DNA from: Apostichopus japonicus
Lineage: Eukaryota > Echinodermata > Holothuroidea > Aspidochirotida > Stichopodidae
Length of the DNA stretch: 64,000 nucleotides
NCBI RefSeq assembly: GCF_037975245.1
Contig: NC_092571.1
Location: 2,524,501 to 2,588,500 of the forward strand
Direction: 5' to 3'
Below the pieces are notes generated by a model that was given only the letters and a program-made list of their open reading frames with translations, was not told the DNA's origin and made no database searches. A program made the translations under genes and the position numbers. Positions 5,064 to 63,444 of this stretch are shown here, piece after piece (within the stretch, counting starts at the first letter, position 1; each line of letters begins with the position of its first letter).

Positions 5064-5403
5064 TTAATCATCATCTTCACTGTCACTGACAAAGTTGTTT
5101 TTCTTAAACGACTTGGGGGATTCTTTCTTCTTCTTCTCCTTTTCTGGAGTCTTTTTCTTTTCTACGATTTCAATTTCCACCTCCATCATTTCAGCATCCT
5201 CTTTGGATTTCTCCTCGATATCTTCCTCTTCCTCTTCCTCCACCTTCTCCTCAGTCTCTTCCTCTTTCTCCATCTTCTCCTCGGGTTCTTTCTCCTCGGG
5301 TTCTGTCTCCTCGGGCGCTGTCTCCTCGGGCTTCGTCTCCTTTTTCTTGGACTTCTTTATCTTGGATTTATCCTTTGTCTTTGAAGATGTCGGCACATCA
5401 TCC
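5064..5403 (-). CDS. PCLAF: PCLAF coding exon 4, acidic/lysine-rich tail
   Basis: Encodes residues 92-203. A strong pyrimidine tract and AAG acceptor precede it, and its phase fits exon 3. It holds Glu/Lys blocks, with proline-spaced PEE repeats near 114-130, then SFKKNNFVSDSEDDD at the C-terminus, whose serines fit casein-kinase-2 sites. Nothing like it is in human PCLAF. Confidence 0.82.
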
Positions 5404-8400: not shown

Positions 8401-11400
8401 TAGATTAGTGTGTAGCGCCAACATATAGATTATTGTATAGCGCCAACATATAGATTATTGTATAGCACCAACTAATAGATTATTGTATACCACCAACATA
8501 TAGATTATTGTATAGCACCAACATATAGATTATTGTATAGCACCAACATATAGATTATTGTCTAGCACCAACATATAGATTATTGTATAGCACCAACATA
8601 TAGATTATTGTATAGCGCCAACATATAGATTATTGTATAGCACCAACTTAGAGATTATTGTATACCACCAACATATAGATTATTGTATAGCACCAACATG
8701 TAGATTACTGTATAGCACCAACATATAGATCTATGTATAGCACCAACATATAGATTATTGTATAGCACCAACATATAGATTATTGTATAGCACCAACATA
8801 TAGATTATTGTAGAGCACCAACATATAGATTATTGTGTAGCACCAACATATAGATTATTGTCTAGCACCAACATATAGATTATTGTCTAGCACCAACATA
8901 TATGGTTGCACATATATGGTCGCACCAGTTGGCGGCTCTGGTCTCTCGGTTTTCTGATGGAGTACAGAGAACAATGGAAAGATCTAGCCCCTTAAAATTA
9001 CTCATGTTTGGCTCATTATTGAATAAGTAGCTTATTAAAACAGGGGGGGGGCTGGGGAGATAAGTAGTTATATAGCAAAATAATGCTGCACAAGAGAAAC
9101 TTTGGTGGCGCTATACAATAATCGTAACACTCCTATTACAAGACATCCCTGGACCTACCACTGGGACTGGGTCTGCTCAGTGTGGCCAAACAGAGTGGCC
9201 AAACAATTTAACAAAGGTCCCCAAGACTTCCCCGCACAGGACTGAACTAAAATAACTTACTCTTCCATCTTACTGCTGCCGGCCCCAGCATCCTCAGGAT
9301 CCTGGTTTTCTTTGTCTAATTTTGGCTCTTTTGGGGTCTTTATGAAGAATTTGGTGATCTCAGCCTGCCATTCCGGAGTTGGTCTCGGACAGTATGGGTT
9401 GCCTCCTGCATGTTTGTTTGCCTTTGCTGTGGTCAGAAAATGAGAAAAAAAAAAAGATTTGTCAAAGCCCGGATATGATCATTAATCTTTGTATATTTAT
9501 AGCTTGGCACAGCTTGGCATTCATCTGATATTGCATTTTAACATCGCGATGTTGGAATTTGTCAAATTGCAAACCAAAAACAAATATGCGTAGAATTCTT
9601 GGAACACACGGAGGCCACAGCTCAAAATTACTGGATTAAGACAAAGCGCTATTTACTTCCAGGCAAGGCAAATCAGAGACATTCACGGCCAAATCTGTCA
9701 CAAACCGGGTCAATTAATGATGTGCTTGAGAATCTTTGCAAACCACCGTTGAACCAATTTTTGTTACACCTTACCAGATTTAACCAGAAAGACTCTTTTT
9801 TGTTGCTGCGGCAGCAAGGAGGAGAAACTGGGCACCTTCATGCTTTAATATCGATATCAATACTGTAGGTCACATCGACTTTGATAATACTAGTTGGTCT
9901 ACTAGTTCCAGTCCCTTCCTTTAGGTGAAGAACATTTTATCCCAGAAATGTCTCCCTTCTCCTCAGTCAAGAAGGATACACAATGGTGTCCTGTAAGAAC
10001 TGTATCATGGTACATCGAAACCACAAAATCAGCTTTTCTCTTTATACTTCCTACACTAGGGTATCCAAGGATACCATATCTAAGTGTGATTCTTATAGAC
10101 AGAAACTGCCACCAGAATTTTCACGAATGGTAGATTCGGAAAAAAGAGGTGATGGGCGTTAACCCTGAGAAAGGTTGATGGGAGGGGGGGGGGCTGTGCT
10201 AAAATGTTACCTGTTAATAGGCTAGGCACTGTACAGTAGATGAGAAAGTGCAAACTTTTCGTGACAGGAGAGGAGCGCAGTTAATTCAGTCGATCGAATG
10301 AGGTCAACTTTGCGGTAACCACCAAGCTGGTTACCCAAAAGTTGTGGGCACCACAGAGCAAAAATTAGTTCAAGCCGTTACCATTGAGAGCTTGTGAAAT
10401 GGCCTAAATACGTCTATACCATGGTATGGAAACAAACAGTACCGCTGCATTGCAGGGTTACCCTACCATTGACCATATATGACTAATATGAGGAATTTAA
10501 GGGAACAACACTGCACAAAACGAAATTGGGATGTCATTTTATGATGGAAACAAACTAACAACTACTGTACACAACAACACAGCTCAGTATCAACAAAACA
10601 ATCAGACAACCTCTTTCAAGTACTGGGAGGTATGTTGACCCACTATCTCATCATTTCTAGATTATTCTCGCCAAATTAACACACTTTAACCACCCGGAAT
10701 ACCTGGAGGCAAGCGGTGGTCTTTCAAGACAGAGGTTTTTACCTGAGGTTGGTGATGTCGATGATGAACTGCCTGCGTTGAAATTTTTACGAGGAGCCTT
10801 GGCAGCAACAGCTGAGAAGAAACAGAAATTTCAACAATTTAACAATTTTAACATACTGTACAATACACAGAATAGGTTTACCTTTAAAATTGGTGAAATT
10901 AGGAACTTAAGATGACGGTAAATTATACTGGAAAAGCAAGCTTTGCAAGAATAAAGTGGTCACATACAAAAAAATAAAAAATTATGATCAAGATCTCTGT
11001 AGCATTAAAAGATGACATTTAGGCAAATTTGTAAACTATTTACAGTAGAAAAATTGAGTGCTAGTAATATTTCTAGACACAAATAAAATCTATATTTGCC
11101 ACCCACAGAATTGAATCCAAAAATGTGAGCCCAAATGGTCCTAAAAGTATTGGGCGTCACAAATTCACGCCCAAAGAATGTGTCCCAAAAAGCATTGTGG
11201 TGGAAATAAAATTTGGGCCCACCCGGCCCAAAATGCACCCAGAAATATTTTGGGGACCAGATGGTCCAATAAATTTGGCACCTTAATGGTCCCAAAAATT
11301 ATTTGACACAAATTGGCTCAAAAATATATTTGCCCCCCCCCCCCAAACATTGAACCCCTAGATATACTTGAGTCAACGTTTTACACCCTTGTTTACAAAT

Positions 11401-29684: not shown

Positions 29685-29914
29685 TTAGACATTTTCCTTG
29701 TCGAGACCAGCCGGCCCGTATCTTGCGATTAATCGAGTCGGGCGAGTGGCCCCCACTTGCTGATGCTTTGTCGCCGTGGCGGACGGAGAGTTCTTGGCGA
29801 CGACGTTGTTCCGAGAAGACAATGGTGATCGTGATCTTTGGGTCAGCGATGCCTGAAAGTTATCCTTCAGAGATCTCTTTGCAGTGGTATTACCTCTGTA
29901 TTTCACTCCTGACT
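29685..29914 (-). CDS. CDCA3: CDCA3 terminal coding exon with KEN box
   Basis: Encodes residues 220-295. It is basic and Ser-rich, with RSRSPLSS and the end DKENV, closely paralleling the human C-terminus. Acceptor AACAG, stop TAA at 29685-29687. GC content is visibly higher than in the flanking DNA. Confidence 0.93.
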
Positions 29915-41900: not shown

Positions 41901-44057
41901 ACAGTTTGCATGTATACTGTAATTAATTACTATTTAAGGTACAGTAGCTACTACATAACAATTTAACTAAACTAATATGTAATGCATTGTAAAAGGTTTA
42001 CAGTACATGTCATGTTTTGATTCACAATGAACTGTCTCCACAGCTTTAGCACATGCATATATACAGTTACTGTAGTACCGTTCACTGTGGGCTACTATGT
42101 ACATACTAGTACTGTAGCACAATGGTACTGTAATGTATCGTAACAGTTTACAGTACATGACACATACATATGTATTTTGAGTCACAATGAACTGCCTCCA
42201 CAGTTTTTGCTGTGCACAGTTACTTTAAATCCCCTTTCACTGTAGGCTACTCTGTGTACATAGTTGAAGTACCATAATACAGTACTAGCAATGCATTTAC
42301 CTACATGGTATCTGTATTGTACATGTATGTCAATCTACCAATCTGCCAAGGCCAGCCCAGCTTCCTGTACATTAACCACTACTTTGACCACAGTTTAGAC
42401 AGCACTTACTGTATCTAGAACATCGTGTCAGACAAGCTGCCTTCATCATATTGCCCAATAGCTACAAGAATATTACATCACACATTACACTGAACAGGTC
42501 AGTACTGTACTGTAAGTGGCATACATGTATGCTTAGCAGGAAACCCACTACAGTAACTAGTTTTATTCCCTTTTTAACACCCCAGTGGTTTTCCAGTGTA
42601 CAGTGCAATTTGACCACACACTAACCAACCATCCTGTGACCGACTGTCCTTCCAATTGCTTCAATGCTGGAAAAAGGGAAACTAGGGAAAGGATGTGCTT
42701 GAAATACATGTGCGCATCTGTCGCAAATTCATGGAAACCGTAGCTATGACAAATCAAATGAGCATGCTACACTTCTTACATTTATAAATTTATGCCAAGT
42801 TTGCAAGTTATTTTATATACTGTATATTAATGCAAAAAATTATGTTTCATGATTCGACCACAATGACATTTTTATCAAGATTTGAGTCAATCTCAACACT
42901 TTTGTGTTCTAGTTAATTCCAGCAAGGAATGACATCATCGTGGCAACATTTTAGCAGATTTAACCTCTTCAGGTACAGTAAATCTGTATCTGTATGGGTT
43001 AAAAGTAACAGCCTGTGGCATATATATTTTACACAGTACTGTACAGTATATGTATGAAGAACCAGAAGTCCCGCAGTTTTGAAGAAGCACTGTGAATTTT
43101 GTCTACGTAATGGAAAGTCTCCTCTTCCTGAAATGGTTTTTGGATGGAGTAAGGAAGGAAGAAGATAAACAAACTGCACAGAGCGGGTCACTTAATCTGG
43201 CAAAACCAGTATTGATTTGATGTCATGCTGTGTAGTCATTTGTTGACGAGAAGTCGCATGAGTTCACCACCAACACTAACAGTGAAATTAAAGTTACACA
43301 AAGATCGTTCACGTATATTGAAACTATAATTGAAACTTTGCAAATTTAATAGTCATACAACTTCTGCTGGTCATAGTTTTGCTTCATAGTTTTAAAGCAA
43401 ACTAATTACCAGTGAATCAAAATTCAAGTGACCAATATTCAAGTGACAAACAAAGCTAAAAAGTCACAGGTCACATTAAAGTAGTAACACTTATTAGAAA
43501 GCAAATATTGTCTGCTTGAAATAAGAACATCTAAGTCAAGCTACTCTTAATATAATTCATGGGACAGGGGATAATGCCTAGTCTGTACCAAACCCAAGAG
43601 ACCTCTATGAAGGAATAAAAAACCACTTTTTCCATGGCTCATATTTATAAAAGTTTTCAACAACAAGAAATAATAAAAAATTTAAAACATTAATCTGAAA
43701 ATATATTTTTTTCTTCAACTCACCCTCAATAGTTTTTATCATGGGCGTCCTTGTAATTCCAATTGATGGAGATCGTGGATCGGGAAAAACGAAAGGGTTG
43801 GCTGGTGTTCTTGGGATGCCCTCTGTGGGCGATCTCGGATCGCCTGTCTCCTCGACCGGTGTCCTACATATCTCTGCTGTAGGGGAACGTGGGTCTTGAA
43901 AGTCTGTGGTATCGGTTATGATCGGTGTTCTGTGAATTGACTCTGATGGAGATCTTGGATCTTGTAACGTTAAGATCCTTCTGTTCTGAATAGGTGTAGC
44001 GTTCTTTTCTTCAACTAATTTGTTATGGGAGTCTTCTCTACTTTCTGATGCACCCAT
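29685..44057 (-). CDS. CDCA3: Cell division cycle-associated protein 3 (CDCA3/Tome-1), three coding exons
   Basis: Join 44057-43724, 38822-38499 and 29914-29685 on the minus strand: 888 nt, 295 codons plus stop, all phase-consistent. CDCA3 is described as an F-box-like factor promoting mitotic entry through Wee1 destruction and is itself removed by APC/C-Cdh1 in G1. Seen here: N-terminus MGASES, fitting N-myristoylation (human MGSAKS also fits); four repeats of DPRSP with RTP at D33, D55, D73 and D93 (human has two); a charged, Asn-rich middle; RSRSPLS near 247-252 like human KRPSPLS; and KEN at 292-294, one residue before the stop (human DKENQ). The start context is strong (A at -3, G at +4). 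Human CDCA3 has 268 residues. Small extra exons in the long introns cannot be excluded. Confidence 0.92.
34600..34965 (+). repeat. Degenerate tandem repeat, about four units near 100 bp
   Basis: Each unit reads roughly TTACAAATGATTCA, then AAGGAATG-GGAAG, AAGCTGA and ATGGAAGGG followed by a G-rich run. Units differ in length and G-run size. Confidence 0.7.
37843..37876. repeat. Perfect 14-bp hairpin with 6-base loop
   Basis: CAGGGAGCTGCTAC, loop TCTAAC, then its exact complement. A relative (CAGGGAGTT stem) lies at 56648-56676 inside a MITE, so it may come from a mobile element; it is too short for a microRNA precursor on its own. Confidence 0.8.
38499..38822 (-). CDS. CDCA3: CDCA3 coding exon 2
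   Basis: Encodes residues 112-219. It begins with a probable coiled coil (EREIAQESEDQLAELRRRK), continues Asn/Asp/Glu/Lys-rich, and ends with the AELAKLRLVDENTSKEVQEV segment. Acceptor ACAG, donor GTAGGG. Confidence 0.85.
38823..43723 (-). other. CDCA3 intron 1
   Basis: 4.9 kb, no exon recognised. Very dense in GTACTGTA/TACAGTAC words, with a local tandem duplication at 41994-42290. Confidence 0.55.
41994..42290 (+). repeat. Tandem duplication of about 155 bp in CDCA3 intron 1
   Basis: Segments beginning near 41994 and 42149 share GTTTACAGTACATG, TTCACAATGAACTG or GTCACAATGAACTG, CCTCCACAG or TCTCCACAG, and CACTGT-GGCTACT in the same order. Moderately diverged. Confidence 0.75.
43724..44057 (-). 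CDS. CDCA3: CDCA3 coding exon 1, four DPRSP repeats
   Basis: Encodes residues 1-111 plus one base. All four repeats keep DPRSP, Ile and RTP at the same spacing (IHRTP, ICRTP, IPRTP, ITRTP), each a potential proline-directed phosphosite pair. Donor GTGAGT. The exon probably extends upstream to an acceptor at 44095. Confidence 0.95.
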
Positions 44058-44095
44058 GATGGTAATCTTTAGGTTGTGTTTAACTCTTCGCAAAA

Positions 44096-45174
44096 CTGTT
44101 GTATAGATACAAAAAATCAAGTTACTTGGAGTACTATGCAAAGGGCATGTTAAGGAAAATATCAACCACAAATGTATCTGTGTGTTTAGTCTGAATCAAA
44201 AATTTAAATTGGGAAACATTAAAGCAACAGGCCAAGTACTAACAGTCATTGAAAGTGTTTGTAAACTGTAGGTAGCAAGAATGCAAGATTAGTACTTACT
44301 GCATGATAATTGATAATGTAGAATATATAACATATATAACATTCAGACTAAAATAGTTAGTTAAGAAGGTGATTAAAATTGATCAACTACTCTAAAAATT
44401 AAAGGGTATTCTTGGAGATTACATATTCTCTAAGTCTAAGGCCTACTTCTATTCTAAGGCCTATATATACAAAGCCAATAAGAAAATTAAAACAATAAGA
44501 ATAAATAAATAGTACAGACAGAAAAATTTAAGAAAAAGAAACAAAAACCTTCATACAGATAACCAACAAGTTAATTTTTCAAGCAAACTTGTCTATACTT
44601 AGGTGAAATTATAGCAAACACACAAAAACCAACTGATACCGACCAAAAATTGTCATATTTGAAGAAAAAAAATAAAAAAATAAATTATCACTAGTAATAT
44701 TCACTAGCCTAAAGATTGCAAATTCTATTAGTATTAAGCCTACCTAAACTCATTTTCCTATTTGTAATTGAATGTGTTGACTCCATGTGTTGCTCTGGCA
44801 GTGTCTTAGAACTGAATGAGGCCAAAATAATAATGTTCTTAGAAAGCCACCTTACACACAAAAGTATTAGTAATATATCCTGAGTCACGGACATTACGAA
44901 TTTACCACCGAATATCCTAACCTAGATGCGTAATACAACAGTACCCACACAATCGGTTAATGCTAACACAATGCATACCTCAGTCACCACTAATACTTCG
45001 TGTAATGTAGAAACGATGTGTGCGGTAAAGGGTTGCAATGAGTCACAAACGGTCAAATCGTCCACAGACTAATCACTCATTTAACCACCATTATATGCAA
45101 CATTTGCCAGCCTGACGGGTGATTTGAATTTTTGCACTACAAACAGTATATGAAAACAATGAAGAACAACTCAC
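44096..45174 (-). other. Probable intron in the CDCA3 5' UTR
   Basis: Bounded by an acceptor (minus-strand ATACAACAG, ending 44096) and a donor GTGAGT (45174). No coding signal inside. The boundary choice is inference from splice motifs. Confidence 0.45.
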
Positions 45175-45235
45175 CATTCACCCTTTATATCCTAAGAAAA
45201 CGTAATAACTTGACTACGCTTGTCGTTGTCTTCAG
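45175..45235 (-). other. Probable CDCA3 5' UTR exon
   Basis: The minus strand has a good donor (AATG|GTGAGT) at 45174, in the right place for a leader exon; the upstream edge is a guess. If spliced to 44095, the ATG at the exon end opens a nine-codon upstream ORF ending before the main start. A TATAAAGGG word at 45189-45181 could instead be a TATA box for a start further downstream, which would remove this exon. Confidence 0.35.
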
Positions 45236-45643
45236 CTGATCCTGAACTAACTTGAATCGTTTGAAAACAAATCGATGAAGACCAATGAGATGATCCGTTA
45301 TATCACAGGATACACACCTGTCGTAATAACAAACGATAATATTGGATGAAAAGTTAAAATAAGTTTAAAAGCAAACTACATACTGTATAACACATGAATA
45401 TAGCTTGGCAAAGGGCATAAATTGCAATTTTCATTCTAAATTATAACCATATATCAAAAAACACAAGACCACTACAATCTAGGTTATTTTACGTATCTTC
45501 ACAAAGGACTAGTTGGTGTTTACCTAGAGCTAAAGTCAGACAGCCCCCATTGACTGAACAGTTTTGTGCTGTACGATATGAGCAGTGCGTACTGATATCT
45601 GAAGGCAAATCGACCGTCTGCTATGTGTAGTTTAAATATCAAA
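45176..45643. promoter_or_regulatory. Shared CDCA3/USP5 upstream region
   Basis: This is the only DNA between the divergent CDCA3 leader and the USP5 start. It contains CCAAT at 45282-45286 (inverted relative to CDCA3), as in NF-Y driven cell-cycle promoters, and a TTTGAA word at 45260-45265 on the plus strand. AAAATGGCGGC at 45641-45651, overlapping the USP5 start codon, resembles a YY1 site. Bidirectional activity is inferred from layout. Confidence 0.55.
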
Positions 45644-45754
45644 ATGGCGGCGCCCATGTCACTGGAGCTTTTGAAGAATCTCCCGTCTCCGCGTGTTCCA
45701 CATGGTGGTGAGAAAGTGTACAAAGATGAGTGTGTGTTCTGCTTCGAGAATCTG
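45644..45754 (+). CDS. USP5: USP5 exon 1
   Basis: Residues 1-37, from [10 protein letters not shown] to [11 protein letters not shown] (human HKDECAFSFD). Start chosen as the first ATG, with AAA before and G after. Confidence 0.93.
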
Positions 45755-48700
45755 GTATGATTAATATTGTTTAACGTCAGTAGTGTTATATTTCTGTCTT
45801 TTTGAATGAAATCGAACCCCGGATTTTTAATAAGCATTGTCATTGTCCTAACGTTACTCGTTAGTGAACAGTAACATTGCGCTAAGTTAGGTTAGGCTAG
45901 CTTCAGTCCAACTTCTACAGCAAGTTACGTTAGCTTACAACTTTACAAGTTAGTAAAGAATGGTTAAGGATGTTTTGGTACTAATTTATAATCCGTACCA
46001 TTCCTAACCCCTAACCCTATTCCCTACTTCCTAACCCTAATTCCTAACCCCTAACCCTATCCCCTACTTCCTAACCCTACTTCCTATCCCTACTTCCTAA
46101 CCCTTATTCCTAGCCCCTAGTAAGCTTTCCCATATGGTACGGATTCTAAAGTTAGGCCAATGTTTTTTCTTAACTTCATAGGCACGTAAGTTGATATTTA
46201 TCTTGCCAAGGTCATGGGTTTGTGCCAAATGTCAGCATGCTAAAAGTCTTCAAAGCAATTTAGTACAAAGGCTTCATAATTGACGCACCTTCGTTATTGA
46301 CGCACCTTCAAATATTACTAATACTAGCCTAGCAATGATACATCAGGCAACCTAAACTTTTTGCAGGGAAGCAGAGTTAGATATTTCATGAGTTTGAATC
46401 CCTTTCAGCTATGTGCTGATCACTTTTTTTTATTTAAGCTTTTAACACCCTCTCCCCAGTTTTGCACGCATTTTGGGGATTTGGAATTTGCAAACAATCA
46501 TTTTGACCTTTACACCAATAGCATATATTGCTCTTTCCTTCGATGCAAATCCAACAACCTTTCATTACTGTGAACGTTTTCTGGGATCAGCTTAATTTTC
46601 TTCCTGAGGGATAACAAGGGTACCTTTGGGTTCTTAGATTATAATGTAAACAGGGGTGTTCATGTTACCAATGAAATATTCTGTCCATCTGATAAGTGTC
46701 ATCTGTACTTTTGTAAGTTTTCCTCCCATATTAGTTCCTGCTATTGTAAATTGCAAATACTCTTTAACTACTGTACTTACTTTACATTTAAGCAAATCAT
46801 TCCTATATATGGTACTATTTTGTTTTTTAACAGTATTTGCTCTTAGAAGAAAGTTATGGCACTTAATGTATATGGTTATCATGTGTTATCATACTTGCAC
46901 TATGCTATAGTAGGCCTATCCAACATTGAAAGCATGCAAGTATGGAATGTGGAGAGATTGCTTCTAAGGCTAGACAGTACAGTACACTACACATGTGCAC
47001 AAATGAAAATGAACGAACATAGTAGCTCAAAATTTCTCGGCTGGGATAGGACTTGACAAATTTTACACTGAACTACTGTACCTCAAATTAGGGATTATTA
47101 CCAAATGATGAAATAACGGAAGAATGCACACAAATTTATTGCTCCCTTACATTCCCCCAGTAAAATGTCACTAAACATGGAAAACGATGACGTTAGTGAA
47201 TTTAACAAATTTCCAGCCCAAGTAGTAAATGGCTTGGCCCAGGTGGTAATTTTTTGGTCAGTCCCCGAGTTCCCAGATACCCATTCTCATGACTAGTAGT
47301 CTAGTTGTACCAGTATGTAGGTGAATGTAAGATCTTTAAAAATGGGGATTAGGATTGAGTGTTCAGGATGTGTGATGAAGAGGGGAGGGGGGTGGAGGGG
47401 GAGGGGAGGTCAGCCTTCTGGGATTGTTGAGACCATGAGGTGGAATGTTGTCAGGTGCTGCATCCACAGTCTTACCTGCTGAGGCGACCTGTATTAGGGT
47501 TGTAAACCTAAAAATTCACTGCCCTGTAAAGAAAAAAACATCAGATTTCAAAGGTGTGGTTTGGAAGGTTGAAACATTGTCTTTCAAATGTGTTCCTTTT
47601 CAGGAGAGCAAAGATGGGCTGTACATTTGTATGAATACATATCTTGGATTCTGCAAGGACCATGTTCTACCACACTTCAAGTCAACAACTAACCCTCTGT
47701 ACTTGCAGATGAAAGTTATTAAGACAAAGGTAACCACATTTTTTCTTCTCCGACTGTAAAAGTTTGATGTCTGGTAAGACTAGATAATTATGATAAAAGA
47801 GAGACTGATAGAGGATTGATGTGTAGCTGAATCGTGTGTATTGAAAATCAGTTTTACAGAGGCTGTGTAGAACCACAGAGAAAGTATTAAAGAGTTAATT
47901 AAGAGTATGATTATGTTAGACCGGCGAGGCCCTAAAACGATGTGATATTGAATATCAAAACTGTTCAGGCCTGCGTGTCTTCGTGGCCTCCATGTCTTTC
48001 AAAGCCTACTGTACAGTACTTCTGAACTGTTCAATTCTTGTACGATTCTTTTTACATTTTTTTCAGAAACCAAAAGAGGAAGTTGAAAAGTTGGAAAAAC
48101 CAACCAGGTTGGCAATAGGTAAGATTTTAGGAAACATTGTATTTGTAAAATCATGCCTTGACTATCCTTTTTTTTTTGCAATCCAATTCGATCACTTTTT
48201 TTTTAAAACAGGTATCAAGGTGTGTTTAGTTTTAAGAATCACACTATGCAGCATACACACCTCAAGCAAGCAGTTTCTCTTTATTAGAACATTATTAAAA
48301 GAATCTGGGTGATGCATAATTATATTACTTTTTTACTTGTAAATTATGTGGGACCTGCAATAAATTCAAAATACGGGTTTACTTCCTAAACAAATTTAAT
48401 ATTGTTGTTTATAATTTTACAGAAAATTTGAAAACATACAAAACTGCTATAATGGAATCATAGAGCCAAGGCAAATTTTGAATGGTCTTCCGGTGGTATG
48501 AGATGACTAAATTGTTGTTCCGTGAACCAAAATCAGCCTTGGAAGTTGTTCGATGGACGAATAGTTGTTGACTTCAAATTCAAATTTCATTGTAACTAAT
48601 TCCCTCCCAAATAGGTAGAATGATAAATTCATAACACCCTACAGCTTTTTGGATATACTGAAATAAAACACAACAATACTTTTGATGGTAACGATCCATC

Positions 48701-51700
48701 CGAGCGGGAGTTTTACTGGCCCACATCTGGTGATTTACTTCGCTCCTCTCTTACCTGTCTCCCACTCCACAATTGCTCTTTCCTATCTACCTAACTACAC
48801 ATTTGGAAATAGTTTAGCACTGGTCCCTCGCTCCCTGGGCCACGCCCACTAATTACTGTACTCCTTCCGTATCTACCACCCGGAAGTAGACTACATGTAA
48901 TTTTTCGCGAAAATTTTCGGCCCACATCTGGTGTTCTATTAACCAAACCTACTCATCTCTCATACAGTGTAAATTTTTTTTAATTTTTAATTTTTTTTTA
49001 CTGTTTTACTGTTTTGATCATTCTTTGATATGTTGCTACATTTTTTGGGACAACCAACTGATAAGTCCTGGCTCTCTGAAGGTTAACCTTGACAATCTTT
49101 TATAGTTTCGTCCATGGAACACATGTACTGTATGTAATACTGCAGACACGACCATGCAGCAGGGGCACACACTGTGATCATTCTTCTTTTGCTTTGTAGG
49201 TGTCGAGGGCGGCTTTGATGTAGAAGATGAGAACCTCTTTGATATCCAGGAGATAAACACATTGGTGGTGTTGCCAGATCGTGCCGAATTCCCATTACCA
49301 AATCCAGAGTTACCTGCTGAGGTAACTTCTACCGTTTTGAAATTTCCTTTCAGTTACAGAAAATTTGTCATATGCCCCAAAAATTGGTTAAATGGCATTG
49401 AACAACCATCATCAACTGATTTTAATATTTCCCGTCAATTTTGTTTTCAGATATAAGATTGACTTCATTCCTCACTTACCTGTCTCTACACAACTGCCAC
49501 ACTCTAGCATTGACATCTTTAGATACATCTCGTACATATTTAGTATTCATCCCAATGCAATAATTACCACTTAGATGTAAAGGTAATTTCTGCTTAAGAT
49601 GTATGATATGTGATACTAGCTCCATTGGAGTTCTGTGGAGGAAAAACGGAGGAAACAGATCAAAAGTTTATAATACAGTATCGTTTTCAAATCCATGAGC
49701 TCTTGACGTAAAGAGTTCAACTAGTCTTAAATCTCTAGTAATTCCAAGTCCAGATTAGGTAGATTCCAAGAAGAGTTCAGGATACCTCGGGTCGACAATG
49801 TTGGCTTGAAAGGTAGGGAAGAATTTATCTGGTTAAAAGCACAACGAAACGCTTCCACTGCACATGAAATGACTAAATTGCAAATGTAAAGATGTATGTT
49901 TATGTACACGGAAACTAAGTGTGCGTAGTGTTTCTGTGATAAATACAAATTTAGATAATAGAAATACTTCATTAATTCCCCACAAGGCAAACATATTCTA
50001 AGTAAGTCTTGAGAAAGGTGGAGGTTTGGAGTACTACAACCATATAATATAGAGAATGTAAACTTGTAAAGTACAGAGTGACTATTCTTGTGTTGGTTTC
50101 AGATCCAAGCATCCATAGCTGGTATCATCACTGCTGATTCTGCCTCTAGACAAGAGGATGTGGCTGCCTGGGATGGAGACCAAAAGTTTATCTCCAAGTG
50201 AGTCATTTCATATCCTGTTGGGACGTTCCATATCAAATCACCAAATTTTGGAGTATGTTGTACTTCGACATCTTTCCAAAATTACCAAATTTATTGTATG
50301 CTTGGAACACCATAAAGTAAACATATTCTGATAACTTCAGTTGCGTTGCTTCAATATTGGCCGATTTTGAAATAGCGCAATTTGTCGCCCAGTGACATTT
50401 TGGCAACTTCTTGATTTTTGAGGTCTCATTTCTCAGCAAATCAACATCCTACAACCTTTTTATTACAGAAAGGTAAGGTATCATGAAGTGTGTAACTGCT
50501 TTTGCTTTACCAAAATGGTTGCAATTTTAGTACTGGCACCCCTGATCAATGCAACAGTCTGATAGGGCAACACTATATGGCTTCAACACTGTTCTTAGGT
50601 CTACATTGATCTCCAGAAATGTATGTGAAAAGCTGTCAAAATGTATCGATGACTGCTTTCATATGGCGATCCACTAAATGAGATAATATTTTTCATAGTT
50701 TGTGATACGATATTGGATTTCTTTTAACCTGATTAGACATGCCGAAAACTTGAAACAACTGGACAATGGCGTGAAGGTGCCTACCAGTGGCTGGAAGTGT
50801 AGTCGATGCGACCTAAAAGACAACCTATGGTTGAATCTAACCGACGGCACCATCTTGTGTGGCCGGAGGTATTTTGACGGCTCTGGCGGTAACAACCACG
50901 CCCTGGACTATTACAAAGAGACCGGATTCCCATTGGCGGTTAAACTTGGCACTATCACACCTAGTGGGGCAGGTATGTGTGAGAGTTTTACACTTTCTGT
51001 GTAAATTGTACTGCAATGTCAAATATTTTAGTCTGGAAGGAATAAGGATAATAGGAATTGTACTTCTTCATTACTTATGGTAGGCAAATATCCGTTTTGC
51101 AAATTATATTAACTTTTGCCCTATGAAACAATAATGTCATGTTTCAAGAGTTATTTGTGTGACTGTAACATCTGTCTTGATATCGTCAAGGACAATGGGA
51201 TGTAACACATTTTTAGGCACAGTTTGTGAATTAAGAAAGATTTAGTTACCGCTGTACAAACCACTGAAGGTATGTACTAGATTTTTTGTTAAGTGTCCAT
51301 CCAAATTCAGTTCGAGCATGTGTTGCTGGATTGATAGAATGCCCTATCGCGCAATTAATTGCTCTAGAATCAGTTTCCAGGGGAGTTTCCTTTTCTCCTC
51401 AACAACTATATTTTATTACCTTTAGCTTCAATCACTTTCTCATTCGATATAATTCATATCGTACGGTTCAACCAGCAGGATATATACCTAATTTGTTCCG
51501 CCTTTCGAAACCATTTCTTTGGGGAAAACAGCTTAACTACTACTGTAGGCAATTGCCAATAGATATTGATATACAAAAATGTAAAATGTATACTTGTTAT
51601 ATATGACTCATGGGACTTATTTTCAGTTTTACTTTCAGTTTTGCAGTTTGTGGCAAACACCACTTACTACACAGATTCTTGCTTAAATAAACATTTCAGT

Positions 51701-57700: not shown

Positions 57701-60700
57701 TTTTTTTAACATTTTGTTGTTGTTATTATTATTATTAATTTTATTTATTAGTATCCTTCTTCTTAATCCTTTGTCTTGTTACATTCATACATTCATTTCT
57801 CCTCCTGTCAGATGAAGTTGCTGCTTACGAGGCTAAACTGGAGGAACTGAAGGCCGAGGCTGGCGATGGTAAACCATCGAAACCAGCACCGAGGCTGAAG
57901 GTTCCTTTTACAGCTTGTCTGGAGAAATTTGCTGCCACTGAGTCAGTCGATGACTTCATGAGTCCTGCTACAAAGGCCAAGGGTATTGCACATAGGTAAG
58001 CTAATAATACTATTGTGATACCAAGGGTATTGCACATAGGTAAGCTAATAATACTATTGTGATACCAAGGGTATTGCACATAGGTAAGCTAATAATACTA
58101 TTGTGATACCAAGGGTATTGCACATAGGTAAGCTAATAATACTATTGTGATACCAAGGGTATTGCACATAGGTAAGCTAATAATACTATTGTCATACAGT
58201 GTGTAAGCTTATGTCCTTAAAGTTAATCAGTGCAGATGGCGGTTGACTGTGTAGGGTTGAAGACTGTTTCTCATCTGTTTCTCATCCATCCATCCATAGT
58301 TTGTGTTTTGACAACTTACCAAGAAAGCTACAATATAACACTTTGGTAAGCTTATAAATTTGGCACACTGGCTGAATTTTCTGTGCTCAGAATGCTGAGC
58401 AGAAGTTGATTATGTATTGAACATGGGCTAACCTTATTATCACAGCATATTGTTTTAGTTTGCTTTTTAAACTAACTAGTCAATGCTGACATGGAGGTAT
58501 GTGGCAGCAGTCCTCAAACTCTTAGGCCCCACAACACAGACCCTTCTGTGAGGACCTGTACTCCTCAGAATCGATGCTCAGCATTTATGAGAGGTAAACT
58601 TGGACTTTGGATGTGATGTTAGAAGAAATTTCACAATCAACCTTTGGGTCACACCCCATAGTTTGCATTCTGTCAGTGTATGGTAAGCTTATTAATGTGA
58701 CACAATGACTGAGGTTATGGTATTGCACTTGGGTATTATGCAATGATCTTTGACAGAAAGGTCTTAGCTTGCCTGCTCCTACAATCTAAGTAAAAACAAA
58801 AATTATTTCTGTCTTTTTGTTTTGATTCTCCCTTTCATTAGAACAAGCAGACTTGCCACCTTTCCTGATTACCTTACTATTCATTTCCGAAAATTCACTT
58901 TAAGCGATGACTGGATTCCCCAAAAATTGGGTAAGAATGAATTGCTTATTATGAACCTCTGTAACAGCTTTTATAACTTTATGTCAAAGTAGAAGGCTAT
59001 TGAGAGGTTTTCATAAAAAATAAAAAAATTAATGTCTTGTGTGTTTGTTTGTTTTTGGGCATGAGTCAAAATCTGTAATAGTGCGTATCTTCAGTGAACA
59101 GACATGTCTTTTTCAAAAGGAGGTGAGATATTTTCATTCATTTTGTCGTTTATCAGAGTTATATGGTAGAGAGGGTTACACGATTGAACTTTCAATGTCA
59201 TCGATCTTCTGCATGTTTTGAAGTAAAGTGATAAACATAAAAACATTAAAACTTAAAAATCACTGTATGAGGAATAAGTGACAGATCTGTGTTTATTTGT
59301 TGTTTCTGTTCTTATTCCGTAATCATGTCTTCGTTAGATGTATCCATCGATGTACCTGATGAGCTTGACCTGACCGCATACAGAGGTCAAGGGTTACAAC
59401 CTGGAGAAAAGGAGTTACCTGAAGGAGGAGCAGATGCAGAACCAGGTATGAAATAGAAGGCAGTTGTTTGATGACAGCATCGTCAAATTGTCATAACTGT
59501 AACTTACTAAATGTTGTATCTAAATATTGTAGGGGGGGGGGGTGGGGCATGGGGGAGAATTGGCTTTAAAGAATAAGAACAGAATGGTTACCAAAACTCT
59601 TTTTTTTCTCTAACTTTTCTGCAATGAACCAGCAATACTCTGGTAAAGGAAGGTATCTTTTAAAGTGGGGGGAGGTAGAGGGGGGTAGTGGTGGGTGGGG
59701 AGAGGGGAGAGGGGGGAGGGAGGAGGGCATGAATGAGACGAGTTGGGTCATGTTTAGGATCCAACTCAGCGTTGATCAATGTCAGGCAGTGTCATGTCAT
59801 GGCTACTGGAGTTTCTGTTGTAATCCACGCATACATTTCTTTAATAACCATCCTCCATCGGGCCTTATCATCACCAGAACCCCAAATTAACGAAGCAATT
59901 GTCGAGCAGTTAATGAGCATGGGATTCCATCGAGAAGGCTGTCGCAAAGCAGTCTACTACACAAAGAACTTGGGCACTGAGGCGGCTATGAACTGGGTCT
60001 TGGAACACATGCAAGATCCCGGTAAGTGCTTTTATCAAAATAGATATTGTTTTTGATGTTTATTCTGTATTAGTTTAGGTGTGCAAGCAAGCATTGACAT
60101 ACAATGATTAAGTGCAACATTAATGACAGCAATAAAACCCTCCAATTATTACACAGATTGTAGTTTACATTTTACTAAACAACAGACTATTTTAATTTTC
60201 CAAATAGCCCAAGGGGAAGTTATAAAACAAGGGAATTAAAACATAGATTTTTGTTTGTGTAACTGATTCAAATTGAGGGATTTGCAAACACTGTAACGAC
60301 CTGGAACAGTACTCAGGTCAATGAATGACGTCACTAAGATGATCTTCAGATTGTAGCACACTGCTCAGTACAGAGCTGTGCGTGACTTTCATGTCAGCAT
60401 AACTGTTATTTTAGTTTAATTTAGGACGCAATGGTCATGACCTAACTAGATAAATAATGTCATTGCATTTCTTCATAATCTCACCATGTGTGAATGGAAT
60501 TTGACAACGTTTTTTCCTCCACATTGTCTTGTATTTCGTTCACCCAGCAAGCAAGCAAAATCCTAAAGGTATATGCAACGATAAAGTCGCATCTAGAACA
60601 GTAATGATTATAAACCGACCCCTTTAATGATTCTATTGATATTGCACATTTTCTAAAGAACAATCGACAAGTTTAAGCCGTAATTTTACAGCATTTCCCG

Positions 60701-63444
60701 ACATCGGATTGACTGTAGATAATAATTGTAGTAGTAAGGAAGTGAGGCATCCTTTTTACTATCCAGAGATGCCAATGGTCATTCGATAGTGTGGACCTAA
60801 CTGGGCTCAAAAGTGATGTCGTCATTTAGAAATCTGCTTCATATAGTGTTATATTGATTATGGAAATGAAATCCATGTAGATTCAGGTTTTGCTTTGTGG
60901 TTGGAGAGTGTAGGTGAAAGGGAGGCGGGGGGGTTACATTTTTTTGCCAAATTTATATTGGATGGGGTAACACTTTTCCCAATCTTCATTCCTCACAATG
61001 ATTTATGTGTGAGCCCTGTTTACAATAACAAGTCACTACCTTTGTTACACTAAATTACTGCAGATAACATATAACTTCCATCTTAAAGACGGGTCCAAAT
61101 AGCTTTCACTGTTTGTTACATATGTATGTTTGTGTTTAGTTGGTTAATTGTTATTATTATCTTTTTCTAAGTCATTATTTTGTTTTCTGTTGTCTTTAAA
61201 CCAAAATGTTCTCTTATAAACCCTTCGATTGTTTTGTTACATCTTTGTACACACTTGAAACCATCTCCATTAATGAACTTGCAACGGAAAGGAAATAATT
61301 TTGTTGTTAGGAATGAGCTAAAAAACATACAGCTGGTCAGTAGAGCTCTGAACATACCATTCTCAAGTCACAGACGGCAATTGCATTTCAACAAATTTTC
61401 TCTCTTTTTGCTAAAGTGGTCCCTGTTAGTCTTGTTAAATAGTTCCCACCTTTTATAATTCGTATTCCTGCCACAGATTTTTCGGAACCCTTGCAAGTCG
61501 GAAATTCTCAGAAGAAACAGAAGACTGAGCAGCCAATCAGTGAAGAGTCGTTAGTCATGATCCAAAGCATGGGATTCACCAAAGAGCAGGCCACAAAAGC
61601 CCTGAGAGCCACAGTAAGTATACTCGGGATCACCACCTGTATCTGACCCTACAAAGATGGATCAGTTTATCGTGGCTTCATCACTAGCCTGCATCTGATC
61701 CTGTCAAGTGGATTAAAGGCTAATAAATTAAAAGAGCAAGCCACAAAAGCCCTGAGAGTCACAGTTAGTTTACTTAGGACCACCACCTGTATCTGATCCT
61801 ACAAAGATGGATCAGTTTATCGTTGCTTCTTCGGTAGCCTGCATTTGATCCTGTGATGTGGATTAAAGGCTCATAAATAAAAAGAGCAGGCTACAAAACC
61901 CATGAGAGCCACAGTAAGTATACTCTGGATCACCACCTGTATCTGATCCTACAAAGATGGATCAGTTTATCGTTGCTTCTTCGGTAGCCTGCATTTGATC
62001 CTGTGATGTGGATTAAAGGCTCATAAATAAAAAGAGCAGGCTACAAAACCCATGAGAGCCACAGTAAGTATACTCTGGATCACCACCTGTATCTGATCCT
62101 ACAAAGATGGATCAGTTTATCGTTGCTTCATCGGTAGCCTGCATTTGATCCTGTGATGTGGATTAAAGGCTCATAAATTAAAAGAGCAGGCTACAAAACC
62201 CATGAGAGCCACAGTAAGTATACTCTGGATCACCACCTGTATCTGATCCTACAAAGATGGATCAGTTTATCGTTGCTTCATCGGTAGCCTGCATTTGATC
62301 CTGTGATGTGGATTAAAGGCTCATAAATAAAAAGAGCAGGCTACAAAACCCATGAGAGCCACAGTAAGTATACTCTGGATCACCACCTGTATCTGATCCT
62401 ACAAAGATGGATCAGGTTAGCATTGCTTTATCTGTGGCCTTGTTTCTGATCCTGCGGGATTGACCGAATTTTCATAAATTAAAAGATCAGGCTACAAAAG
62501 CCATGAGAGCCATTGTAAGTACTGTATGGATCACTGCCAGTATTTGATCCTCCAGGATGGATCAGTTTAGCATTGCTTTATCTGTAGCCTTGTTTCTGAT
62601 CCTGCGGGATTGACCAAGTTTTCATAAATTAAAAGATCAGTCTACAAAAGCCATGAGAGCCATTGTAAGTACTGTATGGATCACTGCCAGTATTTGATCC
62701 TCCAAGATGGAGCAGTTTAGCATTGCTTTATTTGTGTCTTGTCTCTGATCCTGCGGATGAGACTGAAGGTTCATAAATTAAAAAATCAAAAGCCCTGAGA
62801 GGCGCTATAAGTTCTGTATGGATCACTGCCAGTATTTGATCCTCTAAGATGGATTGGATGTTAATTAATTCAACAAAAGGGAAGAAAGTAGTTCATGTTG
62901 GGATTTGTTTCCACTGTTGGCTATCATAGCAAATGAATGTGATATATCAGAAACTATCTATCAGTGGGTATCTGATCCCATTAGAAGAATAGTATGTTCA
63001 GGAACCCTCATAAAGAGTAAAAAACGAACCATTCATGTTGAAATTATACCCTGGATGTGTCCATTTGCAATGGCCCATTTCTTTACTGACCGGTACCCCT
63101 CGCACAGTAACAGTCACGAGTGACCAGCCAAACTAGATAGATCGGTTGGCTTGGAAGAGCACAGGACTTGAAATCCAGAAGTCACTGGTTTCAATTTCAT
63201 TTTCATGAAAGATTTATTCCGCTCTCGTTAAATTTATTTACTACATCATAGTCAGTATTCTATTTTACCTCATTTATTCATAAAATGAATTGTTGATGTT
63301 GTTTACTATCACAGGACAACAACGTGGAGAGAGCTGTTGAATGGATCTTTAGCCACATGGATGAACTTGACTCTGACCCAATGGACACAGGTGAAGCTGC
63401 TGCCTCAACCAGTCAACAATCCACTTGCCGAGATGGCAGCGGAA
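45644..63444 (+). CDS. USP5: Ubiquitin-specific peptidase 5 (isopeptidase T), 19 exons, 3' end beyond window
   Basis: Nineteen exons join in phase to 2257 nt (752 codons and one base), all GT-AG. USP5 is a cytosolic/nuclear cysteine protease that disassembles unanchored polyubiquitin. Domains in order: cryptic N-terminal UBP zinc-finger-like region (about 1-165); UBP zinc finger with ligands C190, C193, C210 and H223, and ubiquitin-tail contacts R212, Y250 and Y252; catalytic Cys box GNSCYMN with C326 (human C335); NRQQDAFEY box near 418-426; UBA1 (MGF 630-632) and UBA2 (MGF 695-697) inserted in the catalytic domain. The C-terminal part with catalytic His (GHYV) is missing because the gene runs off the right edge; about 60 residues are expected. 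The segment before UBA1 is short, as in the shorter human isoform. Confidence 0.97.
45990..46145. mobile_element. Element with 12-bp inverted ends and telomere-like interior
   Basis: AATCCGTACCAT at 45990-46001 is exactly complementary to ATGGTACGGATT at 46134-46145. Between them run irregular CCTAACCC/CCTATTCC/CCTACTT words with CCCTAA-type telomere similarity. Probably a MITE with an expanded internal repeat, not a relic chromosome end. Confidence 0.75.
47604..47729 (+). CDS. USP5: USP5 exon 2
   Basis: Residues 38-79, including [13 protein letters not shown], nearly identical to human [13 protein letters not shown]. Confidence 0.95.
48067..48118 (+). CDS. USP5: USP5 exon 3
   Basis: Residues 80-96: [17 protein letters not shown]; the PTRLAIG motif, split with exon 4, is conserved. 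Confidence 0.93.
48700..48960 (+). repeat. Dispersed repeat (TTACCTGTCTCCCACT family)
   Basis: CTTACCTGTCTCCCACTCCA, followed by TTTCCTATCTACC and AACTACAC, recurs with changes at about 32260-32360 and 49470-49510, and inverted near 38160-38200. GGCCCACATCTGGTG occurs twice inside this copy (48718 and 48921). Confidence 0.6.
49200..49321 (+). CDS. USP5: USP5 exon 4
   Basis: Residues 97-137, [14 protein letters not shown]... then [12 protein letters not shown], where human has VILPDYLEI. Confidence 0.93.
50103..50197 (+). CDS. USP5: USP5 exon 5
   Basis: Residues 138-168, with [15 protein letters not shown] (human ADSASRKQEVQAWDG). Donor GTGAGT. Confidence 0.93.
50219..50470 (+). mobile_element. 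Relative of the 6879-7532 MITE in USP5 intron 5
   Basis: The last part (CTTCTTGATTTTTGAGGTCTCATTTCTCAGCAA) matches 7058-7095 directly, while AGTATGTTGTA and AAAATTACCAAATTTATTGT match the reverse complement of about 7468-7515. The copy is therefore rearranged relative to the other. Confidence 0.65.
50737..50972 (+). CDS. USP5: USP5 exon 6, UBP zinc finger
   Basis: Residues 169-247. Carries the four zinc ligands C190, C193, C210 and H223, plus W200 and R212 of the ubiquitin C-terminus pocket; [14 protein letters not shown] is identical to human. Confidence 0.97.
52230..52324 (+). CDS. USP5: USP5 exon 7
   Basis: Residues 248-279, beginning [12 protein letters not shown]250 and Y252 match the human ubiquitin-tail contacts Y259 and Y261. 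Confidence 0.95.
53449..53585 (+). CDS. USP5: USP5 exon 8
   Basis: Residues 280-324: [15 protein letters not shown], then [12 protein letters not shown] leading into the Cys box, which is split by intron 8. Confidence 0.95.
53907..53963 (+). CDS. USP5: USP5 exon 9, catalytic cysteine
   Basis: Residues 325-343. S325 is split across the junction and is followed by the nucleophile C326 in [11 protein letters not shown]. Only 57 bp. Confidence 0.95.
55079..55150 (+). CDS. USP5: USP5 exon 10
   Basis: Residues 344-367: [20 protein letters not shown], parallel to human KYVDKLEKIFQNAPTDPTQD. Confidence 0.92.
55485..55569 (+). CDS. USP5: USP5 exon 11
   Basis: Residues 368-396: [18 protein letters not shown] (human VAKLGHGLLSGEYSKPVP), then an acidic stretch. 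Confidence 0.93.
56164..56286 (+). CDS. USP5: USP5 exon 12
   Basis: Residues 397-437: [16 protein letters not shown] and the box [13 protein letters not shown]. Human has QDAQEFF; the QEF-to-FEY change here is unusual within the QQDA box. Confidence 0.95.
56341..56942. mobile_element. MITE with TTAA-flanked AGCAGCATTTTGC ends
   Basis: TTAAAGCAGCATTTTGC at 56341-56357 is a perfect 17-bp inverted match of 56926-56942. Each edge includes TTAA, the piggyBac/Kolobok-type target. The 602-bp interior has no coding capacity and carries a hairpin (56648-56676: ACCAGGGAGTT stem, 7-base loop). Confidence 0.75.
57337..57490 (+). CDS. USP5: USP5 exon 13
   Basis: Residues 438-488: [20 protein letters not shown], ending [20 protein letters not shown] (human VKYTQRVDYIMQLPVPMDAA). 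Confidence 0.93.
57812..57995 (+). CDS. USP5: USP5 exon 14
   Basis: Residues 489-549: charged helix [19 protein letters not shown], then [19 protein letters not shown]. Its last 19 bp and donor are the first unit of a 44-bp tandem repeat. Confidence 0.93.
57977..58196 (+). repeat. Five tandem 44-bp copies of an exon-intron junction
   Basis: Units start at 57977, 58021, 58065, 58109 and 58153. Each has the last 19 bp of USP5 exon 14, the donor GTAAGC and 19 bp of intron. Copies are almost identical, so the amplification is recent or homogenised. Only the first donor keeps the reading frame; using a later one reads CAT AGG TAA and stops. Confidence 0.95.
58842..58930 (+). CDS. USP5: USP5 exon 15
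   Basis: Residues 550-579: [19 protein letters not shown] and DDWIPQKL (human TTRFASFPDYLVIQIKKF and LDWVPKKL). Confidence 0.95.
59338..59445 (+). CDS. USP5: USP5 exon 16
   Basis: Residues 580-615: [12 protein letters not shown], then [16 protein letters not shown]. It lacks the longer Ser/Pro-rich insert seen in the long human isoform. Confidence 0.93.
59878..60021 (+). CDS. USP5: USP5 exon 17, UBA1
   Basis: Residues 616-663, first UBA domain: [39 protein letters not shown]. Confidence 0.96.
61477..61613 (+). CDS. USP5: USP5 exon 18, start of UBA2
   Basis: Residues 664-709: a polar linker, then [22 protein letters not shown]. Its last 33 bp are the first unit of the 150-bp repeat that fills the next intron. 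Confidence 0.95.
61581..62856 (+). repeat. Nine tandem about 150-bp copies of another exon-intron junction
   Basis: Units begin at about 61581, 61731, 61881, 62031, 62181, 62331, 62482, 62632 and 62781. Each starts with a copy of the last 33 bp of USP5 exon 18 (part of UBA2) plus its donor and intron. Copies 3-6 are near identical and keep CACAGTAAGT; 7-9 are more diverged and the last is short. Confidence 0.95.
63139..63200 (+). mobile_element. tRNA-derived SINE head (tRNA-Ser-like)
   Basis: Box-A-like TGGCTTGGAAG at 63147-63157 and box-B-like GGTTTCAATTTC at 63187-63198 stand at tRNA spacing, with an anticodon-loop-like CTTGAAA (TGA) between. Stems are imperfect and there is no intact acceptor, so it is a degenerate SINE head and not a working tRNA. 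Confidence 0.5.
63315..63444 (+). CDS. USP5: USP5 exon 19, end of UBA2 (last exon in window)
   Basis: Residues 710-752: [18 protein letters not shown] completes UBA2, then CRDGSG leads to the split codon before the expected KYQLFAF segment. Donor GTAAGG at 63445. Confidence 0.95.

What the first reader, a model, noticed from the sequence alone, without database searches (positions are those of the whole stretch)
43724..45754. CDCA3 and USP5 are divergent neighbours, as in human
CDCA3 (minus) and USP5 (plus) lie head to head with under 0.5 kb between the probable CDCA3 leader exon and the USP5 ATG. From memory, human CDCA3 and USP5 are also divergent and about 1 kb apart on 12p13. Keeping this pair from an invertebrate deuterostome to mammals suggests a shared promoter under constraint, linking a mitotic factor to a ubiquitin-recycling enzyme.
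Basis: partly seen in the sequence, partly recalled or inferred. Interest (0 to 1): 0.7.

Follow-up and report, generated by a model that had tools for sequence, protein, structure and literature searches.

The report
Ancient head-to-head CDCA3–USP5 gene pair
In an animal genome that is probably a sea cucumber's, a cell-division gene and a ubiquitin-recycling gene sit back to back across roughly half a kilobase; both genes share one locus in mammals and fish too, so this small promoter region has probably kept the two together since the common ancestor of sea cucumbers and vertebrates.

Summary
A CDCA3 gene (minus; 295-aa model with four DPRSP…RTP repeats, D-box RSPL, C-terminal KEN) and a USP5/USP13 gene (plus) lie head to head. 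468 bp separate a candidate CDCA3 leader-exon donor from the USP5 ATG; the start codons are 1,586 bp apart. One exon of each gene was searched genome-wide; each has one match. The assembly (671.58 Mb) fits published Apostichopus japonicus (671.60 Mb).

Six of seven other human 12p13.31 genes or families tested map to the same 28.4-Mb contig, 1.6–20 Mb away; two off-region controls map elsewhere. So linkage was kept and local order largely lost, except in this pair. Papers place CDCA3 and USP5 in one locus in mammals and fish; their strict adjacency and orientation there I recall.

Best reading: an old bidirectional promoter kept because both core promoters occupy one short region. The CDCA3 side carries a CCAAT box and CHR-type sites, as expected for a G2/M gene; a YY1-type site lies at the USP5 ATG. 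Motif evidence is modest, starts are unmapped, and a functional link is not shown. A known kind of arrangement; amphioxus, hemichordates and other echinoderms could not be tested here.

The parts
43724..44057 (-). CDCA3 first coding exon (exon A), MGASES..., four DPRSP...RTP repeats
   Evidence: one match in genome
38499..38822 (-). CDCA3 putative coding exon B (phase 1 in, phase 1 out)
   Evidence: inferred from compatible splice sites and phase; no convincing family match
29685..29914 (-). CDCA3 putative last coding exon C with D-box RSPL and C-terminal DKENV stop
   Evidence: degron order as in human CDCA3 (PMC9926468 passages)
44058..44095 (-). CDCA3 5' UTR part of exon A, candidate acceptor just before 44095 (...CAACAG|TTTTGCG)
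   Evidence: sequence; inferred
45175..45240 (-). candidate CDCA3 leader exon ending at donor 45175 (ATG|GTGAGT); its upstream limit is a guess. Alternative donor at 45318
   Evidence: 14 equally strong minus-strand sites in 64 kb, 0.35 expected in this 1.58 kb
45176..45643 (.). intergenic bidirectional promoter region, one match in the genome, CpG o/e 0.91
45251..45265 (+). CHR-type sites CTTGAA (45251) and TTTGAA (45260); TTTGAA reads TTCAAA on the CDCA3 strand, called a functional inverse site in PMC4705690
45280..45288 (+). CCAAT box GACCAATGA (RRCCAATSR)
45641..45651 (+). YY1-type site AAAATGGCGGC overlapping the USP5 start codon
   Evidence: only full site of the pattern AANATGGCGGC in 64 kb
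45644..45754 (+). USP5/13 exon 1 ([37 protein letters not shown]); an in-frame ATG also lies at 45623
47604..47729 (+). USP5/13 exon 2, part of zf-UBP_var
50699..51001 (+). open frame holding the USP5/13 zf-UBP exon
59733..60053 (+). open frame holding a USP5/13 UBA exon

Best explanation
This is an ancient bidirectional gene pair: the CDCA3 and USP5/13 genes are transcribed apart from one short region of about half a kilobase, in a genome that is probably that of the sea cucumber Apostichopus japonicus, as in vertebrates. Shown: adjacency and opposite strands here, one genome match per exon searched, chromosome-scale linkage with other 12p13.31 genes. Inferred: both core promoters lie in 45.2-45.65 kb; on the CDCA3 side a CCAAT box and CHR sites give G2/M expression (NF-Y and MuvB/DREAM), on the USP5 side a YY1-type initiator gives constitutive expression. 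The pair is kept because a break in or near the region would damage one promoter or both, not necessarily because the proteins work together.
For: Gene identities and orientation. One match each for the exon searched from each gene and for the intergenic DNA. Of 7 other 12p13.31 genes or families tested, 6 lie on contig C11: TPI, 8 of 8 matches; enolase, 5 of 5; GAPDH, 4 of 4; NCAPD2, 2 of 2; MRPL51, 2 of 2; G-beta, the best four of 49 matches. 0 of 2 controls do (PGK, PGI). Yet the nearest is 1.63 Mb off, and TPI is 4.15 and 7.55 Mb off. CDCA3 and USP5 share a locus conserved between mammals and fish. CpG o/e is 0.91 for the 468 bp and 0.93 for 44850-45849, reached by 5.5% and 2.3% of windows. 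Human TOME-1 (CDCA3) is described as a CDE/CHR gene activated through CCAAT elements, and CDCA3 is in a list of 210 potential DREAM-CHR targets. RRCCAATSR within 60 bp of TTTGAA occurs in 0.7-1.2% of simulated regions.
Against: No transcript data, so TSS distance and co-expression are unknown. CCAAT and TTTGAA singly are not unusual (66-78% and 44-52% of simulated regions). No E2F-type site was found and no CDE was seen beside the CHR sites (read). In MKI67 the CCAAT boxes set activity, not cell-cycle timing, and functional CHR sites had otherwise been found only singly (PMC8629999 passages). Higher CpG o/e peaks lie elsewhere in the window, near 16 and 20 kb. No other deuterostome genome was searchable; vertebrate adjacency and orientation are partly recalled. 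EMG1, recalled as a 12p13.31 gene, is on C15. G-beta stays just below its family cut-off exon by exon (148.5 of 150 bits). Exons B, C and the leader exon are inferred from splice signals.
Confidence: 0.65

Rival explanations
1. Passive retention: the two genes simply have not been separated, with no selection on a shared promoter.
For: Human divergent pairs are often kept between related genomes (708 of 1,427 with mouse; PMC2670823 Table 2). Chromosome-scale linkage is kept on C11 in general.
Against: All six other 12p13.31 genes or families found on C11 lie megabases away; only 12 of 1,427 human divergent pairs are fully conserved with Drosophila; [quoted passage not shown]
Confidence: 0.18
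2. Functional co-regulation: the pair is kept because CDCA3 (mitotic-entry ubiquitin-ligase adaptor) and USP5 (unanchored polyubiquitin recycling) must be expressed together.
For: Both act in ubiquitin pathways (recalled). [quoted passage not shown] bidirectional genes are co-expressed (PMC3403606 abstract); cell-cycle genes are enriched among divergent pairs (PMC3815023 passages).
Against: The two sides carry different motif classes; PMC3403606 (abstract) failed to support functional relevance of partners; USP5 is not known to me as a G2/M gene (recalled).
Confidence: 0.12
3. Convergent adjacency: CDCA3 and USP5 became neighbours independently in the two lineages.
For: No intermediate lineages could be checked here; PMC2670823 (abstract) concludes that divergent pairs arose independently in insects and vertebrates.
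Against: The pair shares one contig with TPI, GAPDH, enolase, G-beta, NCAPD2 and MRPL51; with about 20,000 genes (19,828 in A. japonicus) chance adjacency of a given pair is very unlikely.
Confidence: 0.02
4. The minus-strand gene is not CDCA3 but another disordered RTP-repeat protein.
For: No Pfam family, no PDB relative of note (best E 0.17); the human CDCA3 repeat motif is recalled, not tested.
Against: Repeat motif, D-box RSPL and C-terminal KEN in the order of human CDCA3, position beside USP5, and one genome match for the exon that holds the repeats.
Confidence: 0.03

Closest known systems
Vertebrate CDCA3 and USP5 (human 12p13.31; CD4 locus of fish and mammals)
   Same: Same two genes in one conserved locus (PMC4470515 and PMC12077880 passages); adjacent and divergent in human as I recall
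   Different: Here TPI is 4.15 and 7.55 Mb and G-beta 1.63 Mb away; PF12248-like exons, not TPI, were found about 15 kb beyond the USP5 UCH piece. Gap here about 0.47 kb, in human smaller as I recall
Putatively ancestral bidirectional promoters of chordates (372 in the amphioxus study, PMC6292497)
   Same: Divergent, short gap; that study ties bidirectional promoters to ubiquitous and housekeeping genes and scores YY1 motifs in promoters (passages)
   Different: Whether this pair is in that set could not be checked (neither gene is named in the main text; supplements could not be read)
CHR/CCAAT G2/M promoters (TOME-1/CDCA3, MKI67, CCNB2)
   Same: Canonical TTTGAA/TTCAAA with a nearby CCAAT box; two CHR-like sites close together, as in MKI67
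   Different: No CDE or E2F site seen; second site is the CTTGAA variant; binding untested

Membership tests
Bidirectional (divergent) gene pair | adjacent genes on opposite strands, 5' ends facing | tested here: met
Bidirectional (divergent) gene pair | transcription starts less than 1 kb apart | tested here: inconclusive
   468 bp between candidate leader donor 45175 and USP5 ATG; 1,586 bp between start codons; no RNA data
Bidirectional (divergent) gene pair | co-expression of the partners | not testable with these tools
   no expression data
Evolutionarily conserved pair | same head-to-head neighbours in distant lineages | tested here: inconclusive
   present here; same locus in mammals and fish by text, but strict adjacency and orientation there are recalled; other deuterostomes not searchable
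CDCA3 | DPRSP...RTP repeats (recalled motif) | tested here: met
   four copies at residues 33, 55, 73, 93
CDCA3 | RxxL D-box followed by C-terminal KEN box | tested here: met
   RSPL at 248, KEN at 292 of 295; human 198 and 258; depends on inferred exon C
CDCA3 | phylogenetic placement with vertebrate CDCA3 | not tested
   no animal proteome at hand; no Pfam match
USP5/USP13 | zf-UBP_var, zf-UBP, UBA, UCH architecture | tested here: met
   human USP5 match E 1.8e-135
USP5 rather than USP13 | closer to USP5 than to USP13 | tested here: inconclusive
   zf-UBP chains of unequal length score 225.6 and 210.4 bits (USP5) against 188.8 (USP13); the zf-UBP frame has one genome match, so best called pro-orthologue
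CHR-type G2/M promoter | CHR element near the start, with CCAAT box | tested here: inconclusive
   sites present: TTTGAA 45260, CTTGAA 45251, CCAAT 45282; the start is not mapped
CHR-type G2/M promoter | CDE four bases from the CHR (only in the CDE/CHR subclass) | tested here: not met
   sequence read by eye; no E2F-type site
CHR-type G2/M promoter | bound by DREAM/MuvB | not testable with these tools
   needs ChIP

The most novel reading that the evidence does not exclude
The 0.47-kb region is one of a small set of bidirectional promoters that survived from the deuterostome ancestor through two vertebrate genome duplications with its split logic intact: CHR/CCAAT cell-cycle control towards CDCA3 and YY1 constitutive control towards USP5, so that neither gene can be moved or freely re-regulated without harming the other.
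Probability: 0.25. Interest if true: 0.55.

Novelty: new member of a known kind. Interest (0 to 1): 0.35.

Why it matters
Very old divergent pairs are rare: of 1,427 human pairs, 12 are fully conserved with Drosophila (PMC2670823 Table 2). A pair kept from an echinoderm to vertebrates, while other genes of the same human region lie spread over 22 Mb of the same contig, is a clean natural test of whether shared promoters hold genes together, and gives a short sequence in which the CDCA3 and USP5 halves can be taken apart by reporter assays.

Tried and rejected
Pfam gave nothing for the CDCA3 exon, nor did the PDB for the 295-aa model (best E 0.17, unrelated). Microsynteny beyond the pair was looked for only in part: of the frames in 30 kb of flanks and the left of the window, 10 were sent (one of them the USP5 UCH piece) and one (5067-5438). 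PF12248-like exons turned up downstream; no gene could be named on the CDCA3 side (best there PIN_11, E 0.0027, below cut-off). CHR or CCAAT singly were rejected as evidence because chance gives them. EMG1 went against the linkage pattern.

Papers: no listing (20 of 29 papers listed; 7 of 9; 10 of 21) or 58 (10 of 29) describes CDCA3–USP5 as a divergent or bidirectional pair. Of the papers I opened passages of PMC12077880, PMC4470515 and PMC7994202 (the last uses bidirectional promoter only of vectors); PMC6995218, which holds CDCA3 and bidirectional promoter once each, was not opened. Most subscription journals are not in the library, Irimia 2012 was not held, and supplements could not be read. 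Neither gene is named in the main text of PMC3815023, PMC11175523, PMC6292497 or PMC13317027. One search printed one donor rank for a wrong position (45177); one search gives the right count. On re-checking I lowered the main confidence from 0.75 to 0.65, because vertebrate adjacency is partly recalled and PMC2871058 speaks for the functional rival, and trimmed two rivals so that the odds add up.
Full report
What is there. The window is G000:C11:2524501-2588500 of an assembly of 671,581,487 bases in 35 contigs. The published chromosome-level assembly of the sea cucumber Apostichopus japonicus spans 671.60 Mb with 23 chromosomes and 34 scaffolds (passages of PMC10344927), so that species is likely but not proven. 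On the plus strand USP5-like exons run from ATG 45644 past the window end; a C-terminal UCH piece is in the next 10 kb. Hand-joined exons match human USP5 (3ihp) at E 1.8e-135. The 101-aa zf-UBP frame has one match in the genome, so the gene is best called the USP5/USP13 pro-orthologue.

On the minus strand the exon that ends at 43724 encodes MGASES… with four DPRSP…RTP repeats. Following splice signals and phase, I joined it to exons 38822–38499 and 29914–29685; both junctions are phase 1 and the product is 295 aa, with RxxL box RSPL at 248 and KEN at 292. Human CDCA3 has its D-box from Arg198 and KEN from Lys258 (PMC9926468 passages). The repeat motif in human CDCA3 is recalled. No Pfam family matches. 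The first coding exon has one match in the genome. I accept CDCA3 at about 95%.

The gap. Between candidate donor 45175 and the USP5 ATG lie 468 bp, which match one place in the genome. A second donor of equal strength is at 45318; 14 minus-strand sites in 64 kb score at least as high as the weaker of the two, 0.35 expected in this 1.58 kb. A leader exon in either place puts the CDCA3 start in a CpG-rich stretch: CpG o/e is 0.91 for the intergenic 468 bp and 0.93 for 44850–45849, against a window mean of 0.43; 5.5% and 2.3% of windows of those sizes reach this, with higher peaks near 16 and 20 kb. At 44250–44749 it is 0.11, which speaks against a start just upstream of the CDCA3 ATG.

Linkage. 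PMC12077880 (passages) gives the human order … CD4, GPR162, GNB3, CDCA3, TPI1, LRRC23, ENO2, with USP5, SPSB2, LAG3 and P3H3 left out of its analysis. [quoted passage not shown] Neither passage states adjacency or strand, which I recall. In G000, six of seven other 12p13.31 genes or families tested are on C11: TPI, enolase, GAPDH, G-beta, NCAPD2, MRPL51; EMG1 is on C15. Controls PGK (C14) and PGI (C3) are not on C11. The G-beta call rests on the best four of 49 matches, an exon cluster whose best exon scores 148.5 bits against a cut-off of 150; the other matches, in large part on other contigs, are weaker. C11 is 4.2% of the assembly; if genes fell independently, six or more of seven would have probability 4e-8. 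This is rough: enolase and G-beta are families with, as I recall, one 12p13 member each, and the 12p13.31 places of GAPDH, NCAPD2, MRPL51 and EMG1 are recalled. Distances from the pair run from 1.63 to 20.22 Mb. So the ancestral chromosome was largely kept and its order shuffled, while CDCA3 and USP5 stayed together. About 15 kb beyond the USP5 UCH piece lie PF12248-like exons; I scanned only chosen frames of the flanks.

Promoter motifs. Human TOME-1 (CDCA3) is described as a CDE/CHR gene activated through CCAAT elements (PMC4419714 passage), and CDCA3 is in a list of 210 potential DREAM–CHR targets (PMC4705690 passages), a paper that also calls TTCAAA a functional inverse of TTTGAA and CTTGAA a known variant. 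The region holds CTTGAA 45251, TTTGAA 45260 and GACCAATGA 45280, within 38 bp. Against simulated sequence, a CHR with RRCCAATSR within 60 bp occurs in 0.7–1.2% of regions and two YTTGAA within 15 bp in 1.0–1.3%; in 636 sliding windows of the real 64 kb, which include this region, 12 and 25. Single motifs are common. I noticed the sites before reading the papers, so this is support, not proof. No CDE was seen. AAAATGGCGGC at 45641 is the only full YY1-type site in 64 kb, though Met-Ala-Ala coding may explain part of it.

Mechanism. I think the region carries two core promoters back to back, one cell-cycle regulated and one constitutive, and that breaks in it are selected against. Pairing for joint function is less likely, but the literature is divided: PMC3403606 (abstract) confirms co-expression and fails to support functional relevance, PMC2871058 (abstract) finds conserved divergent pairs more often related by function. 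[quoted passage not shown] This pair would belong to the minority kept.

Verdict. Real, well identified, of a known kind. The shared-promoter claim is plausible and testable, the functional-link claim unproven.

Noticed in passing
61581-62728: A 150-bp tandem array (7.7 copies) whose unit begins inside a USP5 UBA-region exon and includes the exon end and its likely splice donor.
   Followed up: partly
57977-58197: A 44-bp array, 5 copies at 99% match, repeating what looks like another USP5 exon end with its GTAAGC donor: a second exon-donor duplication in the same gene.
   Followed up: partly
G000:C11 6.59-6.73 Mb and 9.98-10.12 Mb: MRPL51 and TPI occur together twice, about 3.39 Mb apart: MRPL51 with equal scores, TPI exons with nearly equal ones; either a recent duplication or an uncollapsed haplotype in the assembly.
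   Followed up: no
44040-44057: CDCA3 begins MGASES, a fit to the N-myristoylation pattern (glycine 2, serine 6; pattern recalled); human CDCA3, as recalled, begins MGSAKS. A lipid anchor on CDCA3 would be worth testing.
   Followed up: no
7835-8902: 25-bp tandem array of 42 copies.
   Followed up: no
L004:1296-3270: Tandem array with long open frames on both strands (CTRHGALACWNQSVFGVVCFCAK repeats) in the 10 kb left of the window.
   Followed up: no
L003:6011-7910: Exons resembling PF12248 (Methyltransf_FA; one of two frames above its cut-off) about 15 kb beyond the USP5 UCH piece.
   Followed up: partly
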